From NCBI GenBank assembly GCA_015063535.1, contig SVTY01000009.1, positions 22,743 through 86,742 on the forward strand: 64,000 nucleotides of DNA, written 5' to 3'. The position numbers and the translations under genes are program-made. Under the pieces are notes generated by a model. It did not search any database, was not told the DNA's origin, and saw only the letters and a list, made by a program, of their open reading frames with translations. Shown in pieces: positions 37,810-50,568 of this stretch. This DNA is from Oscillospiraceae bacterium. GTDB taxonomy: Bacteria > Bacillota > Clostridia > Oscillospirales > CAG-272. The first letter of the stretch is position 1. Each line of letters begins with the position of its first letter.

Positions 37810-38406
37810 ATGAAACGAGAAACGATTTGTAAAATTTTTTCCGATCTTCCCACCCTGCATACGCCTCGTTTGCTCCTTCGTCCCATGCGGGTATCGGATG
37901 CCGAGGATATGTTTTGCTATGCCTGTCGGGAGGATGTGACCACCTATCTGCTTTGGTCTCCTCATCCGTCAATGCGGTATACGGAGGATTATCTGCGGTA
38001 CATTCAGGGACGGTATTCGCTGGGAGAATTTTACGATTGGGCGGTGGTGGAAAAGGAAAGCCGCCGCATGATCGGTACCTGCGGCTTTACCCGATTCGAG
38101 TTGCCGCACAATAGCGGAGAGCTGGGGTATGTTCTGAATCCCGAATATCACGGAAGGGGATACGGCACCGAGGCGGCGGACAGAGTGCTTCGCTTTGGCT
38201 TTGAGGTGCTGAAGCTCCATCGGATCGAAGCCAAATTTATGCAGGGAAATGAAGCATCGTTGCATGTAATGGAAAAGCTTGGCATGACCCTTGAGGGGTA
38301 CCGACGGGAGGGAATGCTGGTGAAAAGCTCCTATCGAACCATCGGCGTTTGCTCGATCCTGCGCCACGAGTTCGAGGCGGGAAGGCATCGTCGGGATAAT
38401 TTGTAG
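37810..38406 (+). CDS. GNAT family N-acetyltransferase (RimJ/RimL-like)
   Basis: A 198-residue acyl-CoA acetyltransferase. TPRLLLRPMRVSDAEDMF opens the domain, and GELGYVLNPEYHGRGYGTEAA carries the acetyl-CoA pyrophosphate loop. LKLHRIEAKFMQGNEASLHVMEKLGM is split around the conserved NxxS site of RimJ/RimL-like enzymes (NEASL). The target may be a ribosomal protein N-terminus, an antibiotic or a small molecule. AAAGGGGAG lies 4-5 bases before the ATG at 37810; a longer reading starting at 37747 lacks a site. The manA gene follows 18 bases after the stop. Confidence 0.85.
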   Translation: MKRETICKIFSDLPTLHTPRLLLRPMRVSDAEDMFCYACREDVTTYLLWSPHPSMRYTEDYLRYIQGRYSLGEFYDWAVVEKESRRMIGTCGFTRFELPHNSGELGYVLNPEYHGRGYGTEAADRVLRFGFEVLKLHRIEAKFMQGNEASLHVMEKLGMTLEGYRREGMLVKSSYRTIGVCSILRHEFEAGRHRRDNL

Positions 38407-38424
38407 AAAAGAGGAAATACTATT

Positions 38425-39387
38425 ATGAAGAGATATCCGTTAAAGCTGAGGTATATTGCCAAATCTGCCATCTGGGGCGGCACACGCCTGAAGGAGCAGT
38501 GGGGCAAAGAGATCGAGGGAGATATCATTGCCGAGACATGGGAGCTGACGGTTCGTCCGAAGGAAATGGCGGTGATCCAAAACGGAGATGCCTCAGGGCG
38601 GACGCTGGAGGAGCAGATCGCCGCATGGGGCGGAGACTGTGTGGCTCCCTCCTATCGGGTGGGAGACCGTTTCCCCATGCTGGTCAAGCTGATCGATGCT
38701 GCCGACCGTCTGTCGGTGCAGGTGCATCCCGACGACAGCTATGCCTTGCGTGTGGAAAATGACAGCGGCAAGACCGAGATGTGGTATATCGTGGATGCCG
38801 AGCCGGGTGCTTCGATCATTTACGGCTTGGCGGAGGACATCGGACGGGAGGAGTTTGCCCGTGCGGTTGCCGAAAAGCGTATAGACGGTGCCATGAATAC
38901 GTGTCCCGTGAAGGCGGGCGAAAGCTATTTCATTCCTGCGGGGATGCTTCACGCTATTGGTGCAGGGATCCTTATTGCCGAGATCCAACAAAATTCCGAT
39001 CTGACCTATCGGGTCTATGACTATGAACGCCGTCAGGCAGATGGCTCGCTTCGTCCGCTTCACACCGAAAAGGCGTTGGAGGTGGTGCGCCCCTTTGCCG
39101 AAGCGGAGGTGGATGCGCTTCGCTTTGAAAGAGGCAAGGGCGGTGATGAGCTGCTGGCAAACAGCCGCTATTTTAAGGTGCGGCGGCATGTGCTGAAGGA
39201 TGAGCGGATCGAATTGTCACGAAACAAAGACAGCTTCACCTCTTTGCTTTGCGTGGAAGGAGAGGGCGTTCTTTGTCACGACGGAACAGAGTATTCCCTT
39301 GGTCGAGGAGACAGCTATTTTATCCCTGCGGGAATGGGAGCATACACCCTCTGCGGCAGGATGACCGTCCTTTGCTCCGAGCTGTGA
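38425..39387 (+). CDS. manA: class I mannose-6-phosphate isomerase
   Basis: Converts mannose 6-phosphate to fructose 6-phosphate, zinc-dependent. The 320-residue protein is the short Bacillus-type form. Zinc ligands lie in LSVQVHPDDSYA (near residue 96) with the following KTEMWYIVDAEPGA, and the later GMLHAIGAGILIAEIQQNSD block carries a third histidine. It opens with KLRYIAKSAIWGGTRL, as usual. AGAGGAAA lies upstream of the start. Gene order GNAT, manA, pyk with short gaps indicates one operon that feeds mannose into glycolysis. Confidence 0.92.
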   Translation: MKRYPLKLRYIAKSAIWGGTRLKEQWGKEIEGDIIAETWELTVRPKEMAVIQNGDASGRTLEEQIAAWGGDCVAPSYRVGDRFPMLVKLIDAADRLSVQVHPDDSYALRVENDSGKTEMWYIVDAEPGASIIYGLAEDIGREEFARAVAEKRIDGAMNTCPVKAGESYFIPAGMLHAIGAGILIAEIQQNSDLTYRVYDYERRQADGSLRPLHTEKALEVVRPFAEAEVDALRFERGKGGDELLANSRYFKVRRHVLKDERIELSRNKDSFTSLLCVEGEGVLCHDGTEYSLGRGDSYFIPAGMGAYTLCGRMTVLCSEL

Positions 39388-39446
39388 CCGAACCCTGAGT
39401 TTAAGAATTGCCAAAAAGTATAGACTGCCAGAAAAGAGGAACCATT

Positions 39447-40859
39447 ATGCGAAAAACAAAAATTGTATGTACCATCGGTCCTGCCTGTAACAATGAGGAG
39501 ACGCTGACCGGCATGTGTCTTGCCGGTATGAATGTGGCTCGGTTGAATTTTTCTCACGGAACCCATGAGGATCACGAAAAGAGTATTGAGCTGATAAAGC
39601 GTGTTCGCCAAAAATTGGGACTTCCCATTGCCATTTTGCTGGATACCAAGGGTCCCGAATATCGGATCGGAACCTTCCGTGAGGGAAAGGTGATACTGAA
39701 TGAGGGAGATCCCTTTGTGTTTACCTCCCGGGAGGTAGAGGGGGATGAGCGGTGCGTTTCGGTCAATTACAAGAATCTGCCCGAGGAGATGGGGCGGGGC
39801 GATCGGATCCTTTTGAACAACGGTCTTGTGATCTTTGAGGTGGAGGAGATCTGTGATACCGATATCCGTTGCCGTGTGATCGTGGGTGGAGAGCTTTCCA
39901 ATCGCAAGAGCATGAGCTTTCCGGGGAAGGTGCTGAAGCAGACCTATCTTTCGGAGTACGACAAAAGCGATCTGCTGTTCGGAATTGAGCATGAGGTGGA
40001 TTTTATTGCCTGCTCCTTTGTGTCGGTGCGGCAGGATCTGATCGACGTCAAGGAGTTTTTGAAGGCGCACGGCGGTGAACAGCTTGACATCATCGCCAAG
40101 ATCGAAAATCGGTCGGGTGTGGACAATATCAAGGACATCTGCAAGGAATGCGACGGCATTATGATCGGACGGGGAGACATGGGAGTGGAGATTCCCTTTG
40201 AGGAGCTTCCCGCTATTCAAAAGCATTTGATTACCACTTGTCGACTGCTTGGTAAGCGAGTTATCACCGCCACCGAAATGCTGGAGTCGATGATCCATAA
40301 TCCCCGCCCCACCAGAGCCGAGATATCCGACGTTGCCAACGCCGTATACGACGGCACCAGTGCCATCATGCTGTCGGGCGAGACGGCGGCAGGAAAATAT
40401 CCTGTGCTGACGGTGGAGACCATGGCAAGGATCGCCTCTCAGACCGAAAAAAATATCCGGTATACCAAAATTTTCAGGGATTCGGATTTTTTGATCAAAA
40501 ATGCGGCAGATGCGATTTCCCATTCCACCTGCGGTATGGCGATCGATTTGGATGCCAAAGCTATCGTGGCATGCTCTCTGTCGGGAATGACCGCACGGAT
40601 GGTCTCCCGCTTTCGTTGCCCCGTGGATATCATCGGTATGACCACTGATGAGCGGACATGGCGCAAGCTGGCTCTTTCGTGGGGCGTGCTTCCCGCCATG
40701 AGCGAGAAGTTTTTTTCTACCGATGTACTCTTTTATGAGGCGACCAAGCTCGCCAAGCAGAGTCTCGGTCTGTCGATGGGGGATCGGGTGGTCATTACCG
40801 GCGGTATGACCAACGGTGCTTCGGGCAATACCAATATGATTCGGGTCGAGACGATCTGA
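39447..40859 (+). CDS. pyk: pyruvate kinase
   Basis: The last step of glycolysis, transferring phosphate from phosphoenolpyruvate to ADP. The 470-residue protein has KIVCTIGPACNNEETL at the N-terminus, RLNFSHGTHEDH, the active-site block IIAKIENRSGVDNIKDI with IMIGRGDMGVEI, and MLESMIHNPRPTRAEISDVA before the C-terminal allosteric domain. There is no extra PEP-utiliser phosphohistidine domain of the longer Bacillus form. AGAGGAA lies 5 bases before the ATG; a reading from 39408 is longer but without a site. Third gene of the operon; a terminator with T6 follows. Confidence 0.95.
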   Translation: MRKTKIVCTIGPACNNEETLTGMCLAGMNVARLNFSHGTHEDHEKSIELIKRVRQKLGLPIAILLDTKGPEYRIGTFREGKVILNEGDPFVFTSREVEGDERCVSVNYKNLPEEMGRGDRILLNNGLVIFEVEEICDTDIRCRVIVGGELSNRKSMSFPGKVLKQTYLSEYDKSDLLFGIEHEVDFIACSFVSVRQDLIDVKEFLKAHGGEQLDIIAKIENRSGVDNIKDICKECDGIMIGRGDMGVEIPFEELPAIQKHLITTCRLLGKRVITATEMLESMIHNPRPTRAEISDVANAVYDGTSAIMLSGETAAGKYPVLTVETMARIASQTEKNIRYTKIFRDSDFLIKNAADAISHSTCGMAIDLDAKAIVACSLSGMTARMVSRFRCPVDIIGMTTDERTWRKLALSWGVLPAMSEKFFSTDVLFYEATKLAKQSLGLSMGDRVVITGGMTNGASGNTNMIRVETI

Positions 40860-40862
40860 CTC

Positions 40863-40908
40863 TTCGGCTTTCTTCAATTTTTAAAATTTGAAGAAAGCCG
40901 AATTTTTT
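40863..40908 (+). terminator. terminator of the manA-pyk operon
   Basis: TTCGGCTTTCTTCAA pairs with TTGAAGAAAGCCGAA around an A/T loop, followed by TTTTTT. Confidence 0.9.
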
Positions 40909-40994
40909 ATGCCAAAAAAAGAAAAAATCTGAAAAAAACGTCAAAATTATGTGGTTTTGTTTCCGAGAAGGAGCAAAAAAACACGGGGGTCATA

Positions 40995-41023
40995 TTTACA
41001 AACGAAAAAATTTCTGCTATAAT
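40995..41023 (+). promoter_or_regulatory. promoter of the corrinoid methyltransferase operon
   Basis: TTTACA (40995-41000), 17 bases, TATAAT (41018-41023). The -35 is one base from consensus. A 57-base leader with CAAGCAGGTTTCACAAACGG-type sequence follows; no cobalamin riboswitch structure is visible. Confidence 0.75.
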
Positions 41024-41080
41024 AAATACAAATAAATCTTGCAAAGCAGGTTTCACAAACGGAAAACAGGAGCGTGAGGT

Positions 41081-42652
41081 ATGGAGCGTGAATTGGCAAA
41101 GCCCATGCGGCTGACCAAGGCAGAGCTGTTAAAAAGGCGTCCTATCTATCATGATGTGGTGCTTCATAAGACCGTATATGAGTCGGAGTCCTCGTTTGTC
41201 CAGATGTACACCCATGAGCTGATAGAGATCAGCATGGTGACCTCGGGCGGCGGAGTCCATCGGATCTTGAACCAGGAGATCCCCTGCAAGGAGGGCGACA
41301 TTTATATCGTTACCCCCGATATTCCTCACGGCTATTTTGTCAATGCGGCAGGGGAGTGTATGACGGTCCGTCGGTTTCTGTTTGACATTCGGGATTGGTT
41401 TGAGGGGGAGGTTCTGATCCCCGGGCATCCCCGATACTGCTACGGTGTTTTTCGGGACAATGCCGTGACTGCCTATGCCATGCTGAATGCGCAGACGCAG
41501 GAAAAGCTGCAAGGCTTGTTTGATGCTATCGTGCGGGAAATGCTGCATCAGAAGCAGGAATGGCGTGACGGCGTTCGCGCCAATTTGACATTGCTGATGA
41601 TTACCCTGGGAAGGTATGTCAACGGTGCCATCAAAAATATTCCGTCCTCGCCGCCCAAGGATTGGGGACTGGTGTCCTATACTATCCGTACTGTTACCGA
41701 GCAATTCGGTAAGACCGATCTGACACTGGAGACCATTGCGGACTCGCTGTATGTCAGCAAATCTCATCTGAGTCGGGTGTTTAAACGCCTGACGGGCGAA
41801 TCCTTTTCCGACTATCTGCGAAAGATCCGTATGACCCACGCCTGCAATCTGCTGCGGGAGACCGATCTGCGGGTGGAGGAGATCGTGCGGGAATGCGGGC
41901 AAAAGGATATCCCCTATTTTTACCGAGCCTTTCACTGCTATATGGGTATGACGCCTCATCAGTATCGTACATTGCAAGCGAGTACGCTGGAGGCAAAGGA
42001 TCAAAAGGAGCGGAATCGTTTGTTGCTTGACAGTATTTCCGAGAATCTGCGAAAGGGCAGGGCTGTCATGGTCAAGGAATTGATCGGGCAGGCACTGGAG
42101 GGAGAATGTGCGCCCGAAGCCATTCTCAATGACGGAATGCTTCGAGGCATGAGCATCATCGGCGAACAATTTAAAAACAATGAGGTCTTTGTTCCCGAGG
42201 TGCTGGTGGCAGCAAGAGCCATGAATGCCGGTATGCAGATGCTAAAGCCGTATTTATCTGCCGACGGGATATTGGCAACGGGCAGAGTCTGTATCGGTAC
42301 GGTGCAGGGGGATTTGCATGACATTGGAAAAAATCTGGTTCGGATGATGATGGAAGGCAAGGGGCTGGAGGTCATTGATCTGGGGGTAGATGTTCCCCCC
42401 GAGGTGTTCGTACGGACAGCGATCGAACAGGATTGTCAGGTGATCTGTTGCTCCGCACTTTTGACCACGACCATGAGTGTGCTTGCCGATGTGGTCGAGG
42501 AAGCCAAGAGGGCGGGCATTCGGGACAAGGTGAAGATCATGATCGGCGGTGCCCCGGTCAGCGAGGCTTTTTGCCGACGGATCGGTGCCGATTGCTACAC
42601 CGTGGATGCGGCGAGTGCCGCAGAGGCGGCGGTTGAATTATGTTGCTCTTAA
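41081..42652 (+). CDS. AraC-type regulator fused to a complete corrinoid-binding module
   Basis: A 523-residue fusion. Residues about 20-130 are an AraC cupin-like sensing domain (TSGGGVHRILNQEIPCKEG, VTPDIPHGYF). Residues about 195-300 are the two helix-turn-helix motifs (ETIADSLYVSKSHLSRVFKR; IVRECGQKDIPYFYRAFHCY). A short linker leads to residues 311-395, a B12-binding helical cap, and 398-523, a Rossmann corrinoid-binding domain with the base-off motif D411-x-H413-x-x-G416 (GTVQGDLHDIGKN). Residues 319-521 match the free corrinoid protein encoded next at 158 of 203 positions. It is probably a transcription factor that senses cobalamin, its methylation state or its partner proteins, and controls this operon. 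I know of no characterised protein of this architecture. Confidence 0.92.
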   Translation: MERELAKPMRLTKAELLKRRPIYHDVVLHKTVYESESSFVQMYTHELIEISMVTSGGGVHRILNQEIPCKEGDIYIVTPDIPHGYFVNAAGECMTVRRFLFDIRDWFEGEVLIPGHPRYCYGVFRDNAVTAYAMLNAQTQEKLQGLFDAIVREMLHQKQEWRDGVRANLTLLMITLGRYVNGAIKNIPSSPPKDWGLVSYTIRTVTEQFGKTDLTLETIADSLYVSKSHLSRVFKRLTGESFSDYLRKIRMTHACNLLRETDLRVEEIVRECGQKDIPYFYRAFHCYMGMTPHQYRTLQASTLEAKDQKERNRLLLDSISENLRKGRAVMVKELIGQALEGECAPEAILNDGMLRGMSIIGEQFKNNEVFVPEVLVAARAMNAGMQMLKPYLSADGILATGRVCIGTVQGDLHDIGKNLVRMMMEGKGLEVIDLGVDVPPEVFVRTAIEQDCQVICCSALLTTTMSVLADVVEEAKRAGIRDKVKIMIGGAPVSEAFCRRIGADCYTVDAASAAEAAVELCCS

Positions 42653-42705
42653 CGCAGTTGCGTTATGAAAAATAAAAAATAAAAACAAAAAAGGAGAAAA
42701 AAGTT

Positions 42706-43341
42706 ATGGTAAACATGAGCGAAATTTCCGAAACTCTGCAGAAGGGTAGAGCAAAGCTGGTCAAGGAGCTGGTTCAGCAGGCGCTGGATGAGGGTACCGC
42801 ACCCGCAGTCATTCTGAATGAGGGATTGCTGCACGGTATGAACATTATCGGAGAGAAATTTAAGAACAATGAAGTGTACGTTCCTGAGGTTTTGGTGGCA
42901 GCAAGAGCAATGAATGCAGGAACTGAGCTTCTGAAGCCCCATTTGGCGGCTGAGGGCGTGAGTGCAACGGGTAAGGTTTGTATCGGAACGGTACAGGGCG
43001 ACTTGCATGACATCGGTAAGAACTTGGTTCGCATGATGCTGGAGGGCAAGGGCTTGGAGGTCGTTGACTTGGGTGTTGACGTTGCTCCCGAGACCTTTGT
43101 TCAGACGGCGATCGAGCAGAATTGTCAGGTCATCTGTTGCTCCGCATTGCTGACCACCACTATGAGTGTGATGGCAGATGTAGTGAAGGCGGCTGAGGCT
43201 GCCGGCGTTCGGGACAAGGTGAAGATCATGGTTGGCGGTGCTCCCGTCAATGAGAACTTCTGTCGTGAGATCGGTGCTGATTGCTATACTACCGATGCGG
43301 CAAGCGCAGCGGATGCGGCTGTGGAGCTTTGCAAGGGTTAA
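42706..43341 (+). CDS. methyltransferase cognate corrinoid protein (MtbC/MtaC-like)
   Basis: A 211-residue methyl carrier. The N-terminal helical cap (residues about 5-88) and the Rossmann domain (about 90-211) hold a corrinoid, with H101 of GDLHDIG as the lower cobalt ligand (D99-x-H101-x-x-G104). It accepts a methyl group from a substrate-specific methyltransferase and hands it to the next one. The AAGGAG ribosome site lies 9 bases before the ATG. It starts 53 bases after the fused regulator and is followed by a hairpin (43361-43402). Family members work with trimethylamine, methanol, glycine betaine or methoxy-aromatics; the substrate is not readable. Confidence 0.94.
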   Translation: MVNMSEISETLQKGRAKLVKELVQQALDEGTAPAVILNEGLLHGMNIIGEKFKNNEVYVPEVLVAARAMNAGTELLKPHLAAEGVSATGKVCIGTVQGDLHDIGKNLVRMMLEGKGLEVVDLGVDVAPETFVQTAIEQNCQVICCSALLTTTMSVMADVVKAAEAAGVRDKVKIMVGGAPVNENFCREIGADCYTTDAASAADAAVELCKG

Positions 43342-43360
43342 TTTCGGATCGAATAACAAT

Positions 43361-43402
43361 AGGGTATCCTTTTTCCTTCCCGAGGAAGGATATCCTTTCC
43401 TT
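43361..43402 (+). terminator. intra-operon stem-loop after the corrinoid protein gene
   Basis: AGGGTATCCTTTTTCCTTC and GGAAGGATATCCT pair around CCGA, followed by T-rich TTCCTTTTATAAG. Downstream genes run in the same direction without a visible promoter, so this looks like a partial terminator or mRNA-stability element giving more corrinoid protein than methyltransferase. Confidence 0.6.
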
Positions 43403-43447
43403 TTATAAGATTTTTAAATATCAAAATATGAAAGAAAAGGAAATAAT

Positions 43448-44470
43448 ATGGCAAAAAGAAATATGAAGGCGTGGCTCGATGAGTTGCGATCCAATCCGAA
43501 AAAGAAAGCTATGCCCGTTCTGTCCTTTCCCAGTGTCAGTTTGATGAATGTGACAGTAAAGGAATTGATCGCTGACAGTACTCTGCAAGCGAAGGGTATG
43601 AAGATGGTTGCCGACGCCACCGATGCGGCGGCATCGGTCAGTCTGATGGATCTGTCGGTGGAGGCAGAATGCTTCGGTGCTACGGTGCGCTTTTCCGACA
43701 GCGAGGTTCCCACGGTAACGGGACGGCTGATCAACGATATGGAGGAAGCCGAGGCACTGGCAGTTCCCGCTGTGGGAAGCGCCCGTTCCGGCTTGTATAT
43801 TGATGCTATCCGCAAAGCTACCGACCTGATTCAGGATCGTCCGGTCTTTGCCGGAATTATCGGTCCCTTTTCCTTGGCGGCTCGGCTTTTGGATGTGTCC
43901 GAGATCATGATGGATTGTTATGACGATCCCGATATGGTGCATTTGGTTTTGGAAAAGGTCACGCAGTTTTTGATCGAATACGTCAAGGCTTACAAGGAAG
44001 CGGGCGCAAACGGTGTGGTCATGGCAGAGCCTGTTGCCGGCTTGCTTTCGCCCTCTCTCGAAGAAGAGTTTTCCGCACCGTATGTCAAGAGAATCGTCGA
44101 TGCGGTTCAGGATGACAGCTTTCTTCTGATCTATCACAACTGCGGAGACAACATTCTTTCCATGGTGGATTCCTTCCTGTCCTTCGGTGCGGCGGCATAT
44201 CATTTTGGAAATGCCATTAACATGAAGGATATGATGGAGCGGTTGCCTTCGAATGTAGTGGCAATGGGCAATGTGGATCCCGCCGGTGTGCTCCGTATGG
44301 GAACGCCCGAGACGGTTCGCACTGCCACACTTGCAGTCATGGACGAATGCTGCGGTTATCCCAACTTTGTGATCTCCTCCGGCTGTGATATTCCTCCTAT
44401 GACGCCGTGGGACAATATTTATGCATTCTTTAAGACGGTGGATGAGTTTTATGGGGAAAAAAACAGTTGA
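43448..44470 (+). CDS. UroD-family methyltransferase (MtaA/CmuA-like), zinc motif intact
   Basis: A 340-residue TIM-barrel protein of the uroporphyrinogen decarboxylase superfamily, methyltransferase branch. The zinc site H230-x-C232 (IYHNCGDN) and C313 (SSGCDIPP) match the HxC...C pattern of MtaA/MtbA-type methyl-corrinoid:thiol methyltransferases. The glycine-rich GIIGPFSLAARLLD and MAEPVAGLLSPS segments are typical. It would move the methyl group between the corrinoid protein and an acceptor or donor thiol. AAAGGAAA precedes the ATG. The next gene begins 14 bases after the stop; its TTG alternative start overlaps this gene. Confidence 0.87.
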   Translation: MAKRNMKAWLDELRSNPKKKAMPVLSFPSVSLMNVTVKELIADSTLQAKGMKMVADATDAAASVSLMDLSVEAECFGATVRFSDSEVPTVTGRLINDMEEAEALAVPAVGSARSGLYIDAIRKATDLIQDRPVFAGIIGPFSLAARLLDVSEIMMDCYDDPDMVHLVLEKVTQFLIEYVKAYKEAGANGVVMAEPVAGLLSPSLEEEFSAPYVKRIVDAVQDDSFLLIYHNCGDNILSMVDSFLSFGAAAYHFGNAINMKDMMERLPSNVVAMGNVDPAGVLRMGTPETVRTATLAVMDECCGYPNFVISSGCDIPPMTPWDNIYAFFKTVDEFYGEKNS

Positions 44471-44484
44471 GGGGAACAAAAAAG

Positions 44485-45522
44485 ATGACAGCTTCCGAAC
44501 GGATAAAAAAATATTTGTCGGGACAACCCGTTGACCGTTGCCCTGTAATTGAGTGGGCTCCTTGGTGGAATTTGACGGTTAACCGTTGGCACGGCGAGGG
44601 CTTGCCCGCTGAGCGAAAGACGGTGGAAGAGATACAGGACTACTTCGGTCTTGACAAGTGTTTGCAGACAGGGATAGGATATCATACCCCAGACACGCCC
44701 AAATCCGCAGGGCATGGACAGGGGATCGTTGCCGATGAAGCGGATTGGGAAAATGTGAAAAAGACTTTTTTTCCGCCCTTGGATAAAGAGTATTGGGACA
44801 AAAAATTTCAGCGGTTGCAGATGACGAGAGAGAGAGGAGATACGATAAATTTCTTGACGGTGGAGGGATTCTTTTGGTACCCCCGTACGCTCTTTGGTAT
44901 CGAAAATCATTTATACAGTTTTTATGATTATCCCGAGTTGTATCATGACATGTGTGAGGCGTACTCCGATTGGTTAATCAACGTGTTCCGTTACGTTTTC
45001 TCTCATTTTCAATTTGACTTTATGAGTTTTGCAGAGGATATGAGTTATAATTTGGGACCGATGATCTCCAAGGAATGCTTTGATGAGTTTCTTGCTCCGT
45101 TTTATAAAAAGGTGATTCCCGTGATTCATGAATACGGCATTCCCGTGTTTATTGATTCGGACGGCGATATTACCCAAGCGGTCGATTGGTATGCCGAGGT
45201 GGGGGCTGACGGGATGTTCCCCTTGGAGCGGAAAGCGGGCGTGGATGTTTCGATGTACCTTGACAAGCAACCGCAAATGGCATTTATCGGTCATTTCGAT
45301 AAAATGTGTATGAAATACGGTTCTGCGGCGATGCGCGAGGAGTTTGAGCGGATTCTTCCGTCAATGAAGCGGGGCAAGGTGATAGTATCGGTGGATCACC
45401 AGACGCCGCCCGACGTTTCTATTGAAAACTATAAGGAATATGTGAAACTTCTTTTTGAGTATTGTGAAAAAGCGACACACGAAAATACCGACATCAAGCC
45501 GTGTCCCGTATTTGATAATTGA
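44485..45522 (+). CDS. UroD-family methyltransferase homologue lacking the HxC zinc pair
   Basis: A 345-residue protein of the same superfamily as its neighbour but diverged. Where the zinc motif should be, the sequence reads VFIDSDGDIT (D224, D226), and VSVDHQTPPD replaces the later Cys region. It therefore cannot bind zinc in the MtaA manner. In corrinoid systems such proteins can be the substrate:corrinoid methyltransferase, as proposed for methoxy-aromatic demethylases. The start is ATG 44485 with GAGGGG about 10 bases upstream; a TTG at 44467 would overlap the previous gene by four bases. A DUF2284 gene follows 63 bases later. Confidence 0.8.
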   Translation: MTASERIKKYLSGQPVDRCPVIEWAPWWNLTVNRWHGEGLPAERKTVEEIQDYFGLDKCLQTGIGYHTPDTPKSAGHGQGIVADEADWENVKKTFFPPLDKEYWDKKFQRLQMTRERGDTINFLTVEGFFWYPRTLFGIENHLYSFYDYPELYHDMCEAYSDWLINVFRYVFSHFQFDFMSFAEDMSYNLGPMISKECFDEFLAPFYKKVIPVIHEYGIPVFIDSDGDITQAVDWYAEVGADGMFPLERKAGVDVSMYLDKQPQMAFIGHFDKMCMKYGSAAMREEFERILPSMKRGKVIVSVDHQTPPDVSIENYKEYVKLLFEYCEKATHENTDIKPCPVFDN

Positions 45523-45585
45523 CGGGCAGTAGGTTCTAAACACTGCCAAATTTTTTCTGGTTTAAGGTTACGATTGAGGAATAAT

Positions 45586-46140
45586 ATGAAAAATAAGATT
45601 TTTGATGAATTGGTAGCCGTTTCCTTGGAAAACGGTGCGACGAAAGCGCAGGTTATTGCCACGGATGCGATCGAGACAGACCGAGCGTTTCGCGATATGT
45701 GTGCCTCGAATGCGTGCGGAATGTACGGCAAATGCTATATGTGTCCGCCCGATGTGGGAGAGATCGACACGCTGATGGCAGAGGTCAGGCAATACGACTA
45801 TGCTCTTGTGTATCAGACGGTTACCGCACTGGAGGACAGCTTTGATTTTGAGGGAATGGTAGAAGCCAAAAAGAAGACCTATCCTTTGGCACAGAGGCTA
45901 CGCACGATCGTTCAGGATATGAAGCTGTCAAAGGTACTGCATCTCGGTGCGGGCGGCTGCGGCGTGTGCCCAAAATGCGCCAAGCAAACGGGAGAGCCTT
46001 GCCGTTTCCCCGATCGGGCTCTGCCGTCCTTGGAGGCTTACGGCATTAATGTATCTCAGCTTGCCAAAGCGGCAGATATGAAGTATATCAACGGAGTCAA
46101 TACCGTGACCTATTTCGGAGCGGTGCTGTTTTCTCTGTGA
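45586..46140 (+). CDS. DUF2284 cysteine-rich metal-binding protein
   Basis: A 184-residue protein with eight conserved-looking cysteines in two groups: C39, C44, C50 and C53 (CASNACGMYGKCYMCPP) and the later GGCGVCPKCAKQTGEPC. This matches DUF2284, a predicted metal- or Fe-S-binding family that often accompanies corrinoid-dependent methyl transfer. It probably carries electrons or assists cobalt reduction, but this is inference from position between the methyltransferases and the RACo-like activator. GAGGA precedes ATG at 45586; an upstream TTG at 45574 overlaps that site. The activator gene starts 10 bases after the stop. Confidence 0.85.
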   Translation: MKNKIFDELVAVSLENGATKAQVIATDAIETDRAFRDMCASNACGMYGKCYMCPPDVGEIDTLMAEVRQYDYALVYQTVTALEDSFDFEGMVEAKKKTYPLAQRLRTIVQDMKLSKVLHLGAGGCGVCPKCAKQTGEPCRFPDRALPSLEAYGINVSQLAKAADMKYINGVNTVTYFGAVLFSL

Positions 46141-46150
46141 CGGAGGCACT

Positions 46151-47665
46151 ATGAATGCGAACAAACAAACCGTAACTCTGACGGTGGACGGAGGTTTGAG
46201 ACAGATCACACCGGGACAGCGGCTGTCCTCCTATCTGACGGGAGAGCTTCCCTGCGGCGGTCACGGAAAATGCGGAAAATGTAAGGTGATCGCCAAGGGT
46301 GAGCTGTCTGCGGTGAGCCAACGGGAAAGAGAGCTGCTCAGTGAGGAGGAGTTGGCGAGAGGTGTTCGCCTGTCTTGTCTGACCGAGGTGTTGGGAGATT
46401 GTTTGGTCGAGACCGATTCTCCCCCCAAGGGAAGGGTACAGATCTTGACCGAGGGATGGATGCCCGAGGTGGGAAAGGATCCCTTTTTTACCCAATACGG
46501 TATTGCCATAGATATTGGCAGTACGACATTGGCGGCACGGTTGTATGATACCGAAGGGACGCTGTTGAGCGAGGTCAGCCGCCTCAATCCACAGGCTTCT
46601 TTTGGTGCGGATGTGGTGTCTCGGATCGAGGCAGCACTGGACGGAAGGGGCAATGATCTTAAGCAGGCGATTCTTGCGGCACTGGATGAAATGATCACAC
46701 AGCTTGCCGAAAGAGCAGGCGTTTCTGCCGAGACGGTGGATGGAATCGTGATAACGGGAAATACGGTGATGCTTCATCTGCTGACGGGGACTTCTCCCGA
46801 GCCGCTGTCTCACGCACCCTTTGTTGCCGAACGGCTGTTTGGGGAGGAATGTACGGCGGCAGAGCTGGCACTTTCGGCTGTTTTGCCCGAGGCAAAGGTG
46901 TATCTTCCCCCCTGTATTGCGGCATTTGTGGGAGCGGATACGGTCTGCGCTCTGCTTGCTACAGGGCTTTGTGTCGGGGATCAGACCAAGCTGATGGTGG
47001 ATATCGGAACCAACGGAGAAATGGGGCTGTGGCATAACGGTGCTTTGTTCGTTTGCTCCACGGCGGCAGGTCCCGCCTTTGAGGGCGTGGGGATCTCCAT
47101 GGGCATGCGGGGAACCGACGGTGCCATTGACCGAGTGTGGGCAGACGGAGAATCCTTGGCTGTTCATGTATTGGGAGAGACCCAAGCCAAGGGGATCTGC
47201 GGAAGCGGGCTTGTCGATGCCATTGCGACCTTGTTGAAGCTCGAATGGTTGGATGAAACAGGATATTTGGATGACGCTCCGATCTCTCTGACCAAAGCGG
47301 TGACTCTAACCCAAGAGGATGTGCGGATGGTTCAGCTTGCCAAAAGTGCCATTTGCGCAGGGATCGGTACGCTGCTGCGTGTGGCGGGAGCGGATGCCGC
47401 CGAAGTGCCTGTAACCGAGATCGCAGGCGGCTTCGGGTATTATCTGAACATGGCAAATGCCGCCGCTATCGGCTTGTTGCCGCCCGCACTGGAGCAAAGC
47501 GTGCGTGCGGTGGGTAATGCCGCTTTGAGCGGTGCGGCGATGCTGTTGCTGGACCGTACCCTTCAGGCAGAATGCGCCGAGCTTGCCCACAAGGCAAGGG
47601 TCGTGGAGCTTGCCTCTAATCCGATTTTTTCGGAGTTGTACATGATGGGTATGATGTTTGAATAA
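46151..47665 (+). CDS. corrinoid activation protein, RACo-like (2Fe-2S plus ASKHA ATPase)
   Basis: A 504-residue activator that uses ATP to re-reduce inactive Co(II) corrinoid to Co(I). A plant-type [2Fe-2S] ferredoxin domain has C35, C41, C44 and C76 (LPCGGHGKCGKCKV). A short linker leads to the ASKHA domain (DUF4445), with phosphate loops GIAIDIGSTTLAARLYD and KLMVDIGTNGEMGL and a later GICGSGLVDAIA. The C-terminal EIAGGFGYYLNMANAAAIGL block is typical of RACo and related RamA-like activators. It is the last gene of the operon and is expected to act on the free corrinoid protein and possibly on the fused regulator. Confidence 0.93.
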   Translation: MNANKQTVTLTVDGGLRQITPGQRLSSYLTGELPCGGHGKCGKCKVIAKGELSAVSQRERELLSEEELARGVRLSCLTEVLGDCLVETDSPPKGRVQILTEGWMPEVGKDPFFTQYGIAIDIGSTTLAARLYDTEGTLLSEVSRLNPQASFGADVVSRIEAALDGRGNDLKQAILAALDEMITQLAERAGVSAETVDGIVITGNTVMLHLLTGTSPEPLSHAPFVAERLFGEECTAAELALSAVLPEAKVYLPPCIAAFVGADTVCALLATGLCVGDQTKLMVDIGTNGEMGLWHNGALFVCSTAAGPAFEGVGISMGMRGTDGAIDRVWADGESLAVHVLGETQAKGICGSGLVDAIATLLKLEWLDETGYLDDAPISLTKAVTLTQEDVRMVQLAKSAICAGIGTLLRVAGADAAEVPVTEIAGGFGYYLNMANAAAIGLLPPALEQSVRAVGNAALSGAAMLLLDRTLQAECAELAHKARVVELASNPIFSELYMMGMMFE

Positions 47666-47672
47666 GCAAAAC

Positions 47673-47712
47673 AAGGAGCTGTGCGACATGAGTTGTGTCG
47701 CACAGCTCCTTT
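47673..47712. terminator. bidirectional terminator
   Basis: AAGGAGCTGTGCGACA pairs with TGTCGCACAGCTCCTT around a short loop; TTTTCTT follows. It ends the methyltransferase operon and the convergent FAD oxidoreductase gene. Confidence 0.9.
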
Positions 47713-47714
47713 TC

Positions 47715-49535
47715 TTAAAAGATCTCGTAATTGAACAGATGAGCGGTGGCGCATCCGTAATCATTGTTTTTTTGCTCACTGTGATAGGTGCTTAACGGAA
47801 TGAAATGTACAGCCTTAACGGTGACATTCAGCATATGCTTGACGAAGCGCAGGTGATTGTCGGTTACTTCTACCGCCACTCGGCGGACTCCCGTTTCATC
47901 CTCTATCTCAATTCGGTAGTGCTTGATCAGACAGCGGGGAAAGCCGAAGGACGTGCCATTGTGATTGAGTGGGAAGAACAGGACGGAGGAATGGTTCAAG
48001 CCATCCGGGTTTCCGTCGGTGTATTCCCGATCCAGATCGCTGTCAAAGACCAAGCGAACACCCTTTACATGCGTCGGACGGTCAAAGGTATAGGTGATCG
48101 CCTTGTTTGTCTTCCCGAAATAGCCGTTGTCGTTGCCCCATATGCGGCGGTCGATCCCGTTCAAAAGTCGGGAACAATCCCCGTACTCGCAGGAAAGGAT
48201 GGCGCATTGCGCCAAAGGGGACACGGTGCGATGCAGACCGGGCAAGAAGCAATCGTCCTCCATTAAGGTTTGCTGGATCTCTGCAATTTTTTGATCTGCT
48301 GTCTCTCTCGGGGAAAGACCGTATCGCACGGCAATAGCGGCGGCGGTTCCCGCTGCTTGTCCGATCACGCCCACGGTTCCCATGACACGGGTGGAGCTGA
48401 AGGCAATGTGGGAGGCACTGATATTTCTGCCGGCAAACATCAAATTGTCGATGTTTTTGGAATAGAGTGCGCGCAACGGAATTGAATACGGCTCACAAAG
48501 ACGGCGCTTTTGCTGATGCTTTCCGTCGGCGGAATCTATGTAAAATCCGCCGGGCAGATGGTTGTCGATCGGCCACCCGCCGTACGCAATCGTATCGGGG
48601 AAGGGAGTGCATTGTTCTACATCCTGTTGCGTTAGGACATAGTCGCCCACATAGCGGCGGCTTTCTCTTTTTCCGGGGAGGAAGCCGACCCATTCCAGCT
48701 CCCAGTTTTCGGCGCCGTGATCTCCGTGGTTTTTGATATGATCCCATACACCGAAGGCGATCTTTAACAGCTCGTCCCGAATCTCCTCTGTGTCTTCAAT
48801 GCTGTTTTGCAAGCCGCCCAGCTCGATCCAGTAGAAATTGGTATTGACGGCGTAAAGATCGTGCGGCTTATGACGCATGGCGGCATCATCGGGAAAGTCG
48901 TATGCCCATGAGGGTGGGGAATAGGAAATAGGATGATCGGTTTCTCTGCATTGAAGCATCAAACTCATGCCCATGGTATGCGTATCTGCTTTTTCTACGG
49001 CAAATTCCTCCTGAAATTCACTTTTTGCTTCTCGTCCCACTCGATATTCCGCACCTGTCAACGGTGCCAGAATGCTATCGCCCGAGCAATCCACAAAAAT
49101 TTTTGCCCGAACTTCATGCCAGAGATACGTTGTCAGCTGAAAGCCCTTTACGGCGGTGATGTGTCCGTTTGCCTCGGAGGCATCACAGCAGGTACAATTC
49201 AGGATCAGGTCAATATTTTCCTCGAAGCGTACCATTTCATACAGCAATGCATCCCATGTGCTGAAATTTCGGGTGGGGTTGCGGTGCATGTTTTTTAAAA
49301 GCAGTTCTTCCATGATCCCGGTTTCTTGCAGATCCCGAATGCGGCTTCCCGCTCCCGAGATCCACATGCGGATCTCACTGCTTGCATTTCCCCCGAGAAC
49401 GGGTCGGTCATGCATCAGAACGACCTTGGCACCGTTTCTTGCCGCCGAAATGGCGGTAAACAGTCCGCCGATTCCTCCGCCCACCACACAAATATCTGCC
49501 TCATGCAGCTTGATTTTTAATGGCTCTTTTCTCAT
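47715..49535 (-). CDS. FAD-dependent oxidoreductase (FAD_oxidored family)
   Basis: A 606-residue flavoprotein. The dinucleotide motif ADICVVGGGIGGLFTAISAA stands near residue 10, followed by VLMHDRPVLGGNASSEIRMW, a block typical of the PF12831 family. FVDCSGDSILAPLTGAEYRVG and the later NLMFAGRNISASHIAFSSTRVMG complete the FAD site. Members occur in glycan and polyol degradation clusters and may oxidise secondary alcohols. A C-terminal beta-rich domain (from about 480) is attached. GAGGAGAAG lies before the ATG at 49535. It is divergent from an AraC gene, which probably controls it; it is not clearly tied to the corrinoid operon. Confidence 0.85.
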   Translation of the reverse strand: MRKEPLKIKLHEADICVVGGGIGGLFTAISAARNGAKVVLMHDRPVLGGNASSEIRMWISGAGSRIRDLQETGIMEELLLKNMHRNPTRNFSTWDALLYEMVRFEENIDLILNCTCCDASEANGHITAVKGFQLTTYLWHEVRAKIFVDCSGDSILAPLTGAEYRVGREAKSEFQEEFAVEKADTHTMGMSLMLQCRETDHPISYSPPSWAYDFPDDAAMRHKPHDLYAVNTNFYWIELGGLQNSIEDTEEIRDELLKIAFGVWDHIKNHGDHGAENWELEWVGFLPGKRESRRYVGDYVLTQQDVEQCTPFPDTIAYGGWPIDNHLPGGFYIDSADGKHQQKRRLCEPYSIPLRALYSKNIDNLMFAGRNISASHIAFSSTRVMGTVGVIGQAAGTAAAIAVRYGLSPRETADQKIAEIQQTLMEDDCFLPGLHRTVSPLAQCAILSCEYGDCSRLLNGIDRRIWGNDNGYFGKTNKAITYTFDRPTHVKGVRLVFDSDLDREYTDGNPDGLNHSSVLFFPLNHNGTSFGFPRCLIKHYRIEIEDETGVRRVAVEVTDNHLRFVKHMLNVTVKAVHFIPLSTYHSEQKNNDYGCATAHLFNYEIF

Positions 49536-49580
49536 TTTTTTCTTCTCCTCTTGCAAAGTTACACAGAATGTGATATGATA

Positions 49581-49643
49581 ATTATAACGGTCATAAAATA
49601 AAAAATCTTGTATGTTTGTGACCTATAATTATGAATTTGTGAC
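49581..49643. promoter_or_regulatory. divergent regulatory region with 21-bp-spaced direct repeat
   Basis: TTTGTGAC occurs at 49615-49622 and 49636-49643, 21 bases apart (two helical turns), as expected for an AraC-type operator. A minus-strand -10 TATAAT sits at 49586-49581 with no fair -35, which suits an activated promoter for the FAD oxidoreductase gene. Confidence 0.55.
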
Positions 49644-49668
49644 ACAATTAAACGATAGGAGGAGGACG

Positions 49669-50568
49669 ATGCAACGAAAAACCTTTTATCCGGAAACCGG
49701 AAAGAGAACCTTTCCGGCACTGATTAACTGGACAGGTCATGATCTGAATGAATGCTTGTTTTATTCGTATCGGGATACGGTCTATGATCGCAGTACCTAC
49801 CCTGCGGATCTGCATTATCATGAATACTATGAGCTGGTGATCTTTTTGGAGGGGAATGTTCGGTATATTTGTGAATCTTCCGTTTATGTTCCTCAATACG
49901 GCGATGTGATCTTGGTGCCGCCCGGGCAATTACACATGTCTGTGCTGCAAGGGAATAGAACCCGATATCGCCGCCATGTGTTCTATCTGACACAGGATGC
50001 CTTTGACGGGGCAAGGTGCGGTGCTTTATCGGAATTGTTGAAGAAATTTACAAAGGTTCGCTTTTTGTGCGTGCCCGAACGAGAAGCATTTGGAGAGATG
50101 ATCGGGCTGTTGGAGCGGCTGAGCGGAATTTTGGGAGGAGAGGTGGAGTCGATGGAGCGGGCATTGGGATTTGGATACACCGTACAGCTTTTTTATCTGT
50201 TGAATCGCTGTGCGGCCCCCACTGAGGAGCGAAAGCAGCAATTGCCCGAACCGATCCGCCATATCAAGGAATATGTAGATTCGCATATTACCGAGTTTTC
50301 TACCGTGAACGAGGTTGCGGAGGCGTTATTTTACAGTAGAGAGTATATATCTCGGGCGTTTAAACGGTATTTTCATACCACCGTATCAGACTATATCCGA
50401 AAGAGGCGGATCGCTATGGCACGGGAACTGATTGCGGCGGGAGTTCCTTTAATCGAGGTCTGTTACCGTATCGGTTTTGGCAATATGTCTACGTTTATTC
50501 GCTCGTTTCATGCGGTGGCGGGCATGTGTCCGTCCGAATATCGGGAGATGGTGCGGAGCAAACAATAG
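49669..50568 (+). CDS. AraC family transcriptional regulator
   Basis: A 299-residue regulator. The N-terminal cupin carries LHYHEYYELVIFLEGNVRYI and VYVPQYGDVILVPPGQLHM, a sugar-sensing type fold. The C-terminal region (about 190-295) has two helix-turn-helix motifs: VNEVAEALFYSREYISRAFK and EVCYRIGFGNMSTFIRSFHA, ending in the family tail GMCPSEYR. AGGAGGAGGA is a very strong ribosome site before the ATG at 49669. It is divergent from the FAD oxidoreductase gene and separated by a spaced direct repeat, so it likely controls that gene and perhaps the dehydrogenase downstream. Confidence 0.92.
   Translation: MQRKTFYPETGKRTFPALINWTGHDLNECLFYSYRDTVYDRSTYPADLHYHEYYELVIFLEGNVRYICESSVYVPQYGDVILVPPGQLHMSVLQGNRTRYRRHVFYLTQDAFDGARCGALSELLKKFTKVRFLCVPEREAFGEMIGLLERLSGILGGEVESMERALGFGYTVQLFYLLNRCAAPTEERKQQLPEPIRHIKEYVDSHITEFSTVNEVAEALFYSREYISRAFKRYFHTTVSDYIRKRRIAMARELIAAGVPLIEVCYRIGFGNMSTFIRSFHAVAGMCPSEYREMVRSKQ

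What the first reader, a model, noticed from the sequence alone, without database searches (positions are those of the whole stretch)
41081..42652. AraC regulator fused to a complete corrinoid-binding module heads a corrinoid methyltransferase operon
The 523-residue protein has an AraC cupin domain, two AraC helix-turn-helix motifs, then the full two-domain corrinoid module (helical cap plus Rossmann fold) with base-off motif D411-x-H413-x-x-G416. It is the first gene of an operon encoding a free corrinoid protein, two UroD-family methyltransferases, a DUF2284 protein and a RACo-like activator. Known B12-dependent regulators such as CarH use a MerR-type DNA-binding domain and sense light. Here the sensor is a methyl-carrier domain. 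It could report the methylation or redox state of the carrier pool, or be methylated by the operon's own enzymes and reactivated by the RACo-like protein, tying transcription to flux. I know of no characterised protein of this kind.
Basis: partly seen in the sequence, partly recalled or inferred. Interest (0 to 1): 0.93.

Follow-up and report, generated by a model that had tools for sequence, protein, structure and literature searches.

The report
Methyl-carrier domain turned gene switch
A predicted bacterial gene switch ends in a complete vitamin-B12-type module much like the predicted methyl-carrying protein encoded by the next gene, so it would likely sense methyl groups moving through the neighbouring enzymes, and in relatives without a separate carrier gene a single gene is predicted to make both the switch and the free carrier.

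Summary
The 523-residue frame at 41081-42652 holds an AraC cupin, an AraC double HTH and a full cap-plus-Rossmann corrinoid module with D-x-H-x-x-G. It is not an assembly error: 51 full-length fusions were read in 50 genomes, and 48 of 51 have UroD-type methyltransferase genes nearby.

The larger finding was not in the original claim. In genomes without another close corrinoid gene, the AraC/corrinoid junction holds an in-frame ribosome-binding site and start codon (32 of 33; the exception has carrier fragments at two contig ends), where a free carrier protein would begin. Where another carrier gene exists, as in the window, that signal is usually absent (15 of 18). So in most relatives one gene probably makes both regulator and free carrier; in the window a separate gene supplies the carrier.

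Fusions without the start still keep the corrinoid-binding motifs (16 of 16), with dN/dS near 0.1 in two testable pairs, which points to a corrinoid-based sensor. That it reads methylation by the operon's own enzymes, somewhat as Ada reads DNA methyl damage, is my favoured mechanism, but inferred. No binding, expression or translation data exist.

The parts
40863..40902 (+). terminator-like hairpin after the upstream gene; separates it from the operon
   Evidence: inverted repeat, 20-nt arms, 95% complementary, T-run after it
40995..41023 (+). promoter-like site TTTACA-17-TATAAT, 58 bases before the ATG
   Evidence: 11 of 12 matches; number of sites not above shuffles
41081..42652 (+). AraC-corrinoid fusion gene, predicted transcription regulator, 523 aa
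41147..41383 (+). AraC-type cupin domain (residues 23-101), with conserved C69, H83 and, just outside, C120
41714..41968 (+). AraC double helix-turn-helix (residues 212-296)
42003..42010 (+). AAAAGGAG: ribosome-binding-site-like remnant at the junction; ATG at the homologous place is lost, TTG codons follow at 42020
42026..42247 (+). fused corrinoid module: helical cap (residues 316-389)
42284..42631 (+). fused corrinoid module: Rossmann B12-binding domain (residues 402-517); base-off motif DxHxxG at 42311-42328
42691..42696 (+). ribosome-binding site (AAGGAG) of the separate carrier gene
42706..43341 (+). free corrinoid protein, predicted methyl carrier, 211 aa
43361..43396 (+). terminator-like hairpin (15 pairs) between carrier and methyltransferase genes
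43448..44470 (+). URO-D family methyltransferase related to MtaA-type methylcobalamin:CoM methyltransferase (called MT1 here)
44467..45522 (+). second, divergent URO-D family protein (called MT2 here); candidate substrate methyltransferase
45574..46140 (+). DUF2284 protein
46151..47665 (+). RACo-like corrinoid reductive activase (ferredoxin, middle and ASKHA domains)

Best explanation
This is a predicted AraC-family regulator with a complete corrinoid methyl-carrier module joined behind its DNA-binding domain, and it would likely switch its operon according to whether the operon's methyltransferases have methylated that module's cobalt. Shown by sequence: the fusion, the intact corrinoid motifs, the operon, and, in relatives without another carrier gene, an in-frame ribosome-binding site and start codon at the junction. 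Inferred from that: one gene yields full-length regulator plus free carrier, so sensor and carrier present the same surface to the same enzymes; in the window the internal ATG is lost and a separate gene supplies the carrier. Inferred: the module binds corrinoid, is methylated by an operon methyltransferase (44467-45522 is the candidate for the substrate step), is emptied by the MtaA-like protein and re-reduced by the RACo-like protein, so that methyl-Co(III) reports flux whatever the methyl donor is. Direction (activation by the methylated form) is a guess by analogy with Ada.
For: Architecture and operon. Family: 120 of 120 listed hits have the same domains. 48 of 51 fusion loci have a UroD methyltransferase on the same strand in the fetched stretch, 29 DUF2284, 29 RACo (several contigs are cut short). 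Internal start: 32 of 33 fusions in genomes without another close corrinoid gene versus 3 of 18 with one, Fisher p 3.8e-9. Ribosome-binding-site match of at least 5 bases at the junction in 29 of those 33 versus 19 of 761 other in-frame ATGs of the 51 genes. The GGAG bases stay while the amino acids change (KGE, KEK, QEE, TEE). Junction RNA is weakly folded: mean -2.5 kcal/mol (n=35) versus -10.5 at other ATGs (n=743) and -9.5 at start-less junctions (n=16). Start-less fusions keep GD[LIM]HDIG, S[AS]L/M and GG in 16 of 16 and show dN/dS 0.09-0.10 in two pairs. Photoreceptor motif W-x9-EH (recalled) in 0 of 120 modules.
Against: No experiment shows corrinoid binding, methylation, DNA binding or internal initiation. 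The window keeps a 6-base ribosome-binding-site match before a TTG, so a weak internal start there is not excluded; allowing TTG the contrast is 32 of 33 versus 5 of 18. Three fusions have both an internal start and another carrier gene (L091, L099, L106). The tree-corrected test is underpowered: 6 supported pairs, about 4 in the expected direction, none against, 2 tied, median p 0.125. Start-less modules evolve faster, and 22 of 94 carrier-invariant columns are relaxed in them, so docking to the methyltransferases may be weakened. The window's fused and free modules are not sisters in the tree, so a simple tandem duplication is not shown. A sister locus (L108) carries the same kind of AraC gene unfused. 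The AraC cupin could be the real sensor.
Confidence: 0.5

Rival explanations
1. The fused module senses corrinoid supply or cobalt redox state, not methylation: the regulator is active only when loaded (or in one redox state), so the operon is made when its cofactor is available.
For: Corrinoid motifs are kept in 16 of 16 start-less fusions; an activase gene is in the operon; known B12 regulators sense the cofactor (CarH, recalled; PMC11796333 passages).
Against: The module is the methyl-carrier type, related to MtgC/MtbC-like models, lacks W-x9-EH, and in most relatives is itself the operon's likely carrier. No Rfam match such as a cobalamin riboswitch at 38000-50000 says nothing either way.
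Confidence: 0.3
2. The fusion is a by-product: the stop codon between adjacent AraC and carrier genes was lost, the free carrier is what matters, and the fused module does nothing in the regulator.
For: Six related loci (L120-L124, L131) have an AraC gene directly before a separate carrier gene, three of three scanned being PocR-AraC; L108 is an unfused cupin-AraC in the genus of fused ones; the junction still looks like the start of a carrier gene.
Against: Where the internal start is gone and another gene can supply the carrier, the fused module is retained with intact motifs in 16 of 16 and dN/dS near 0.1 in 2 pairs.
Confidence: 0.12
3. The internal site at the junction is not a start but a pausing signal or a coding coincidence, and only the fusion is made; the fusion itself is both regulator and carrier.
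For: Ribosome-binding-site-like motifs can pause ribosomes (recalled); no translation data here.
Against: Start codon at fixed spacing, frame-independent conservation of GGAG, weak RNA folding, and near loss when another carrier gene exists.
Confidence: 0.08

Closest known systems
CarH and related B12-dependent photoreceptor regulators (MerR HTH plus B12 domains)
   Same: DNA-binding domain joined to a cap plus Rossmann B12 module in one protein
   Different: AraC double HTH with an extra cupin, module of methyl-carrier type, no W-x9-EH motif, methyltransferase operon instead of light response
Ada, methylation-activated regulator of E. coli (PMC4437013, passages)
   Same: regulator proposed to be switched by receiving a methyl group
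   Different: Ada takes the methyl irreversibly on cysteines from damaged DNA; here a reversible corrinoid acceptor is proposed and no Ada domain is found
Monomeric corrinoid carrier proteins of methyltransferase systems (MtgC, MtbC, MttC, MtvC type)
   Same: fused and free modules match these models and solved structures
   Different: all below the curated cut-offs of the named NCBIfam models; module sits behind an AraC regulator
type 1 mlp gene clusters (PMC10418091: abstract, passages, first part of Results)
   Same: several UroD-superfamily methyltransferases, one corrinoid protein, one Ram/RACE activase
   Different: the passages and section read mention no AraC regulator, DUF2284 or fusion (term counts AraC 0, DUF2284 0); membership of the methyltransferases was not tested
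PocR-AraC regulators next to corrinoid genes
   Same: AraC gene directly before a carrier gene in related genomes
   Different: PocR sensory domain instead of cupin, and not fused
Genes with two in-frame products by internal initiation (CheA, IF2; recalled)
   Same: one frame, two starts, shared C-terminus
   Different: here the short product would be an enzyme-system carrier and the long one its regulator

Membership tests
AraC/XylS regulators | double HTH of about 100 residues | tested here: met
   HTH_AraC twice and HTH_18 above cut-off
AraC/XylS regulators | binds DNA and controls transcription | not testable with these tools
   no expression or binding data
corrinoid methyl-carrier proteins | cap (B12-binding_2) plus B12-binding domain with DxHxxG, SxL and GG motifs | tested here: met
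   all 120 hits have DxHxxG, 119 with SxL/M at the expected spacing
corrinoid methyl-carrier proteins | score above a curated model of a named carrier (MtgC, MtbC, pyl_corrinoid) | tested here: not met
   best 206 bits against cut-off 370; pyl_corrinoid 181.5 against 215.3; the free protein also falls short
corrinoid methyl-carrier proteins | binds corrinoid and accepts methyl | not testable with these tools
   needs purified protein
CarH-type photoreceptors | MerR-type HTH | tested here: not met
   only AraC HTH found
CarH-type photoreceptors | W-x9-EH motif in the cap (recalled) | tested here: not met
   absent in P0001 and in 120 of 120 sequences searched from residue 301 on
Ada | Ada metal-binding methyl-acceptor domain | tested here: not met
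   no such Pfam match
type 1 mlp gene clusters | Mlp2 and Mlp3 methyltransferases | not tested
   the paper's reference sequences were not compared
dual-product gene by internal initiation | in-frame ribosome-binding site and start before a complete downstream domain | tested here: met
   in 35 of 51 fusions; in the window only a TTG remains
dual-product gene by internal initiation | both products observed | not testable with these tools
   no ribosome profiling or proteomics held

The most novel reading that the evidence does not exclude
A self-reporting methyl pathway: one gene makes the corrinoid carrier and, with an AraC regulator in front, its own sensor, so the Co-CH3 bond formed by the pathway's enzymes is itself the transcription signal. 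The regulator would answer to flux, whatever the methyl donor, and lineages with a separate carrier gene (as in the window) free the fused copy to be a sensor only.
Probability: 0.42. Interest if true: 0.93.

Novelty: new variant of a known kind. Interest (0 to 1): 0.82.

Why it matters
Corrinoid methyltransferase systems take up many methylated compounds, and how a cell knows which of them is present is largely open (my view, not searched exhaustively). A regulator built from the carrier would need no receptor for each substrate: any enzyme that loads the carrier would load the sensor. It would also be the first case I know of where a cobalt-methyl bond is the transcription signal, and a clean case of one gene giving both a pathway part and its regulator. 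Loci with and without the internal start form a natural experiment.

Tried and rejected
Assembly error joining two genes: rejected by 51 full-length fusions in 50 genomes. CarH-like light sensing: rejected on HTH type and missing motif. A cobalamin riboswitch or other Rfam family at 38000-50000: none at gathering threshold. Simple tandem duplication of the window's fused module to give the next gene: not supported; the two modules are not sisters, although each other's identity (78%) is the fused module's highest. A larger independent set of fusions: family of G099, genera of G110 and G311 gave no full-length fusion beyond those already held, nor did the family of G575. Genome-contig scan gave one full-length relative (L009), which has the same gene layout and junction as L109 and was left out of the counts. 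Candidate operator repeats TTTACAAACGAAAAA/TTCACAAACGGAAAA (40995-41009, 41052-41066): two copies in AT-rich DNA, no control, not used.

Rows dropped before counts: L108 (frame split by TAA), L120-L124 and L131 (unfused), L009 (duplicate). G318 was counted as the exception; a wider search afterwards (E 1e-15 instead of 1e-45) found fragments of a free carrier at the end of one contig and the start of another; moving it gives 32 of 32 versus 3 of 19, a post hoc change, so the headline stays 32 of 33. In that wider search the other extra hits in these genomes were 29-41% identical pieces in frames of 780-884 residues, the size of methionine-synthase-type proteins (inferred). Of 38 loci listed for free modules, 5 (L133-L136, L139) gave no row because my motif pattern missed them. 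In the column comparison 9 divergent carrier rows and 3 divergent fusion rows were left out. Four dN/dS pairs (with L087 or the window) were dropped for misalignment or saturation. Folding energies were not corrected for base composition. One search stopped with an error after printing the folding result; the rest was redone. Family, order and phylum searches scored only 3 candidates per genome, so rates are lower bounds.

Full report
1. The observation. The frame 41081-42652 is open for 523 residues. Pfam gives AraC_binding, HTH_AraC (twice), HTH_18, B12-binding_2 and B12-binding, each above its cut-off. The base-off motif D411-L-H413-D-I-G416 is there. The model from the family alignment (mean pLDDT 83.1, pTM 0.44, so domain arrangement is unsure) matches solved corrinoid proteins best (MttC in 7xcn, 4jgi) and also AraC-type regulators such as ToxT and Rns. 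The gene is followed by a free corrinoid protein, two URO-D proteins, DUF2284 and a RACo-like protein. The fused module and the free protein are 77% identical over 206 residues. In the held assembly (1.67 Mb, 84% complete) these two are the only corrinoid-module matches of the fusion protein; the other 27 of 29 matches are AraC-type.

2. A family. In the protein search the 120 listed hits all carry AraC HTH plus both B12 domains (4717 matched at E 1e-3, many of which may share only one part). All 120 have D-x-H-x-x-G, and 119 the S-x-L/M at the expected distance. In whole genomes, 43 of 394 sampled from the family match at E 1e-140 (two of these, G103 and G346, are not intact fusions), 10 of 394 from the order (one, G055, unfused) and 2 of 398 from the phylum (the window's genome and an unfused case). 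So it looks confined to this order, as far as 3 scored candidates per genome can tell. I took 51 intact fusions from 50 genomes, the window included. 48 of 51 have a UroD methyltransferase on the same strand in the fetched stretch, 42 an MT1-like one, 29 DUF2284, 29 RACo; the three without are L093 (contig ends soon after), L114 and L119.

3. The junction. In 35 of 51 fusions the junction DNA holds a ribosome-binding site (at least 4 bases of AAGGAGGT at proper spacing) and an in-frame ATG (once GTG) 5 to 8 codons before the conserved I-S-E-N of the carrier, so the inner product would be a 209-216 residue carrier whose first residues look like those of genuine free carriers. The GGAG bases are kept in different reading frames, giving K-G-E, K-E-K, Q-E-E or T-E-E, which argues for selection on the RNA. 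A match of 5 or more bases occurs at 29 of the 33 junctions in genomes without another carrier gene but at 19 of 761 other in-frame ATGs of the same 51 genes. The RNA around the inner start is weakly folded: mean -2.5 kcal/mol (35) against -10.5 (743 other ATGs); start-less junctions are at -9.5 (16) (not corrected for composition). At protein level 72 of 118 database fusions have a methionine at the right place, 68 of them with a compatible dipeptide before it; 2 of the 120 were not scored.

4. The trade-off. I searched all 50 fusion genomes (and G346) for other genes like the window's free carrier (E 1e-45). Without another one, 32 of 33 fusions have the inner start; with one, 3 of 18 (Fisher p 3.8e-9; with TTG allowed 32 of 33 and 5 of 18, p 2.2e-7). 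The exception, G318, has pieces of a free carrier at two contig ends, found afterwards. The three with both are L091, L099 and L106. Loci are not independent; on a tree of the AraC part the start trait changes 11 times and another-carrier 13 times, and the supported independent pairs (6) go about 4 to 0 in the expected direction with 2 ties, median p 0.125. In the tree of modules, fused and free ones interleave (18 label changes, least possible 2; quick method, many weak forks), as expected if the same protein serves both roles. The window's free protein lies among dual-use carriers and its fused module near other start-less fusions (weak support), so the carrier gene is a second gene, not shown to be a tandem copy.

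5. What the start-less fusions tell. In them another gene can provide the carrier, yet 16 of 16 keep GD[LIM]HDIG, S[AS]L/M and GG. Two pairs that can be aligned give dN/dS 0.093 (L105/L107) and 0.097 (L075/L083), against 0.055-0.094 in five dual-use pairs. Of 94 columns almost invariant in carriers, 72 are kept in 13 start-less fusions and 22 are relaxed. So a corrinoid site is probably needed in the regulator itself, while some carrier constraints are eased. Which constraints these are (methyltransferase docking, activase docking, stability) I could not test, and loss of docking would count against the methylation reading.

6. Mechanism. MT1 resembles MtaA (4ay7, E 2.7e-17); MT2 is divergent, with no solved relative at E 1e-3, and MT2-like genes vary from locus to locus (22-29% identity in most loci, 67-73% in two), as expected if donors differ. 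I infer: an MT2-type enzyme methylates carrier and regulator from its own donor, MT1 removes the methyl, the RACo-like protein repairs oxidised cobalt. The regulator then reads how much methyl flows. Ada is the nearest working analogue: an activator made active by methylation (PMC4437013, passages). Supply or redox sensing is the main rival.

7. What is known. Ten searches of the paper library gave nothing on an AraC-corrinoid fusion or such a dual-product gene; the library lacks most subscription papers. The closest gene-cluster paper (PMC10418091; outline, passages and first part of Results) has no hit for AraC or DUF2284. The B12-photoreceptor survey (PMC11796333, passages) lists HTH, GGDEF and other partners, with no hit for AraC. 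PMC3306737 and PMC7478625 (passages) were not relevant.

8. Verdict. Observation confirmed; interpretation partly supported and extended. The dual-product gene is strongly supported by sequence, corrinoid sensing moderately, methylation as the signal is the best single guess.

Noticed in passing
window 40995-41066: Near-repeat TTTACAAACGAAAAA / TTCACAAACGGAAAA, one copy over the -35 hexamer and one downstream of the -10; possible operator, no control done.
   Followed up: no
window 43361-43396: 15-pair terminator-like hairpin between the free carrier gene and the methyltransferase genes; could make carrier mRNA more abundant than enzyme mRNA.
   Followed up: no
P0001 residues 69, 83, 120: C69 and C120 are invariant in the 32-sequence alignment and H83 nearly so, unusual for an AraC cupin; possible metal, redox or ligand site.
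   Followed up: partly
L099:6730-8019 and L097:9570-10724: Two protein families without Pfam match recur on the regulator's strand in 15 and 11 fusion loci; by eye they may be remote UroD-like proteins.
   Followed up: partly
L120, L123, L131 (also L121, L122, L124): Unfused loci in which an AraC gene (PocR-AraC in the three scanned) directly precedes a free corrinoid gene; possible ancestral layout.
   Followed up: partly
L108:5028-6626: Cupin-AraC and carrier separated by an in-frame TAA in a genus (g3) whose other members are fused.
   Followed up: partly
window 47715-49556 (-) and 49612-50568 (+): FAD-dependent oxidoreductase gene and a second cupin-AraC regulator beyond the operon.
   Followed up: no
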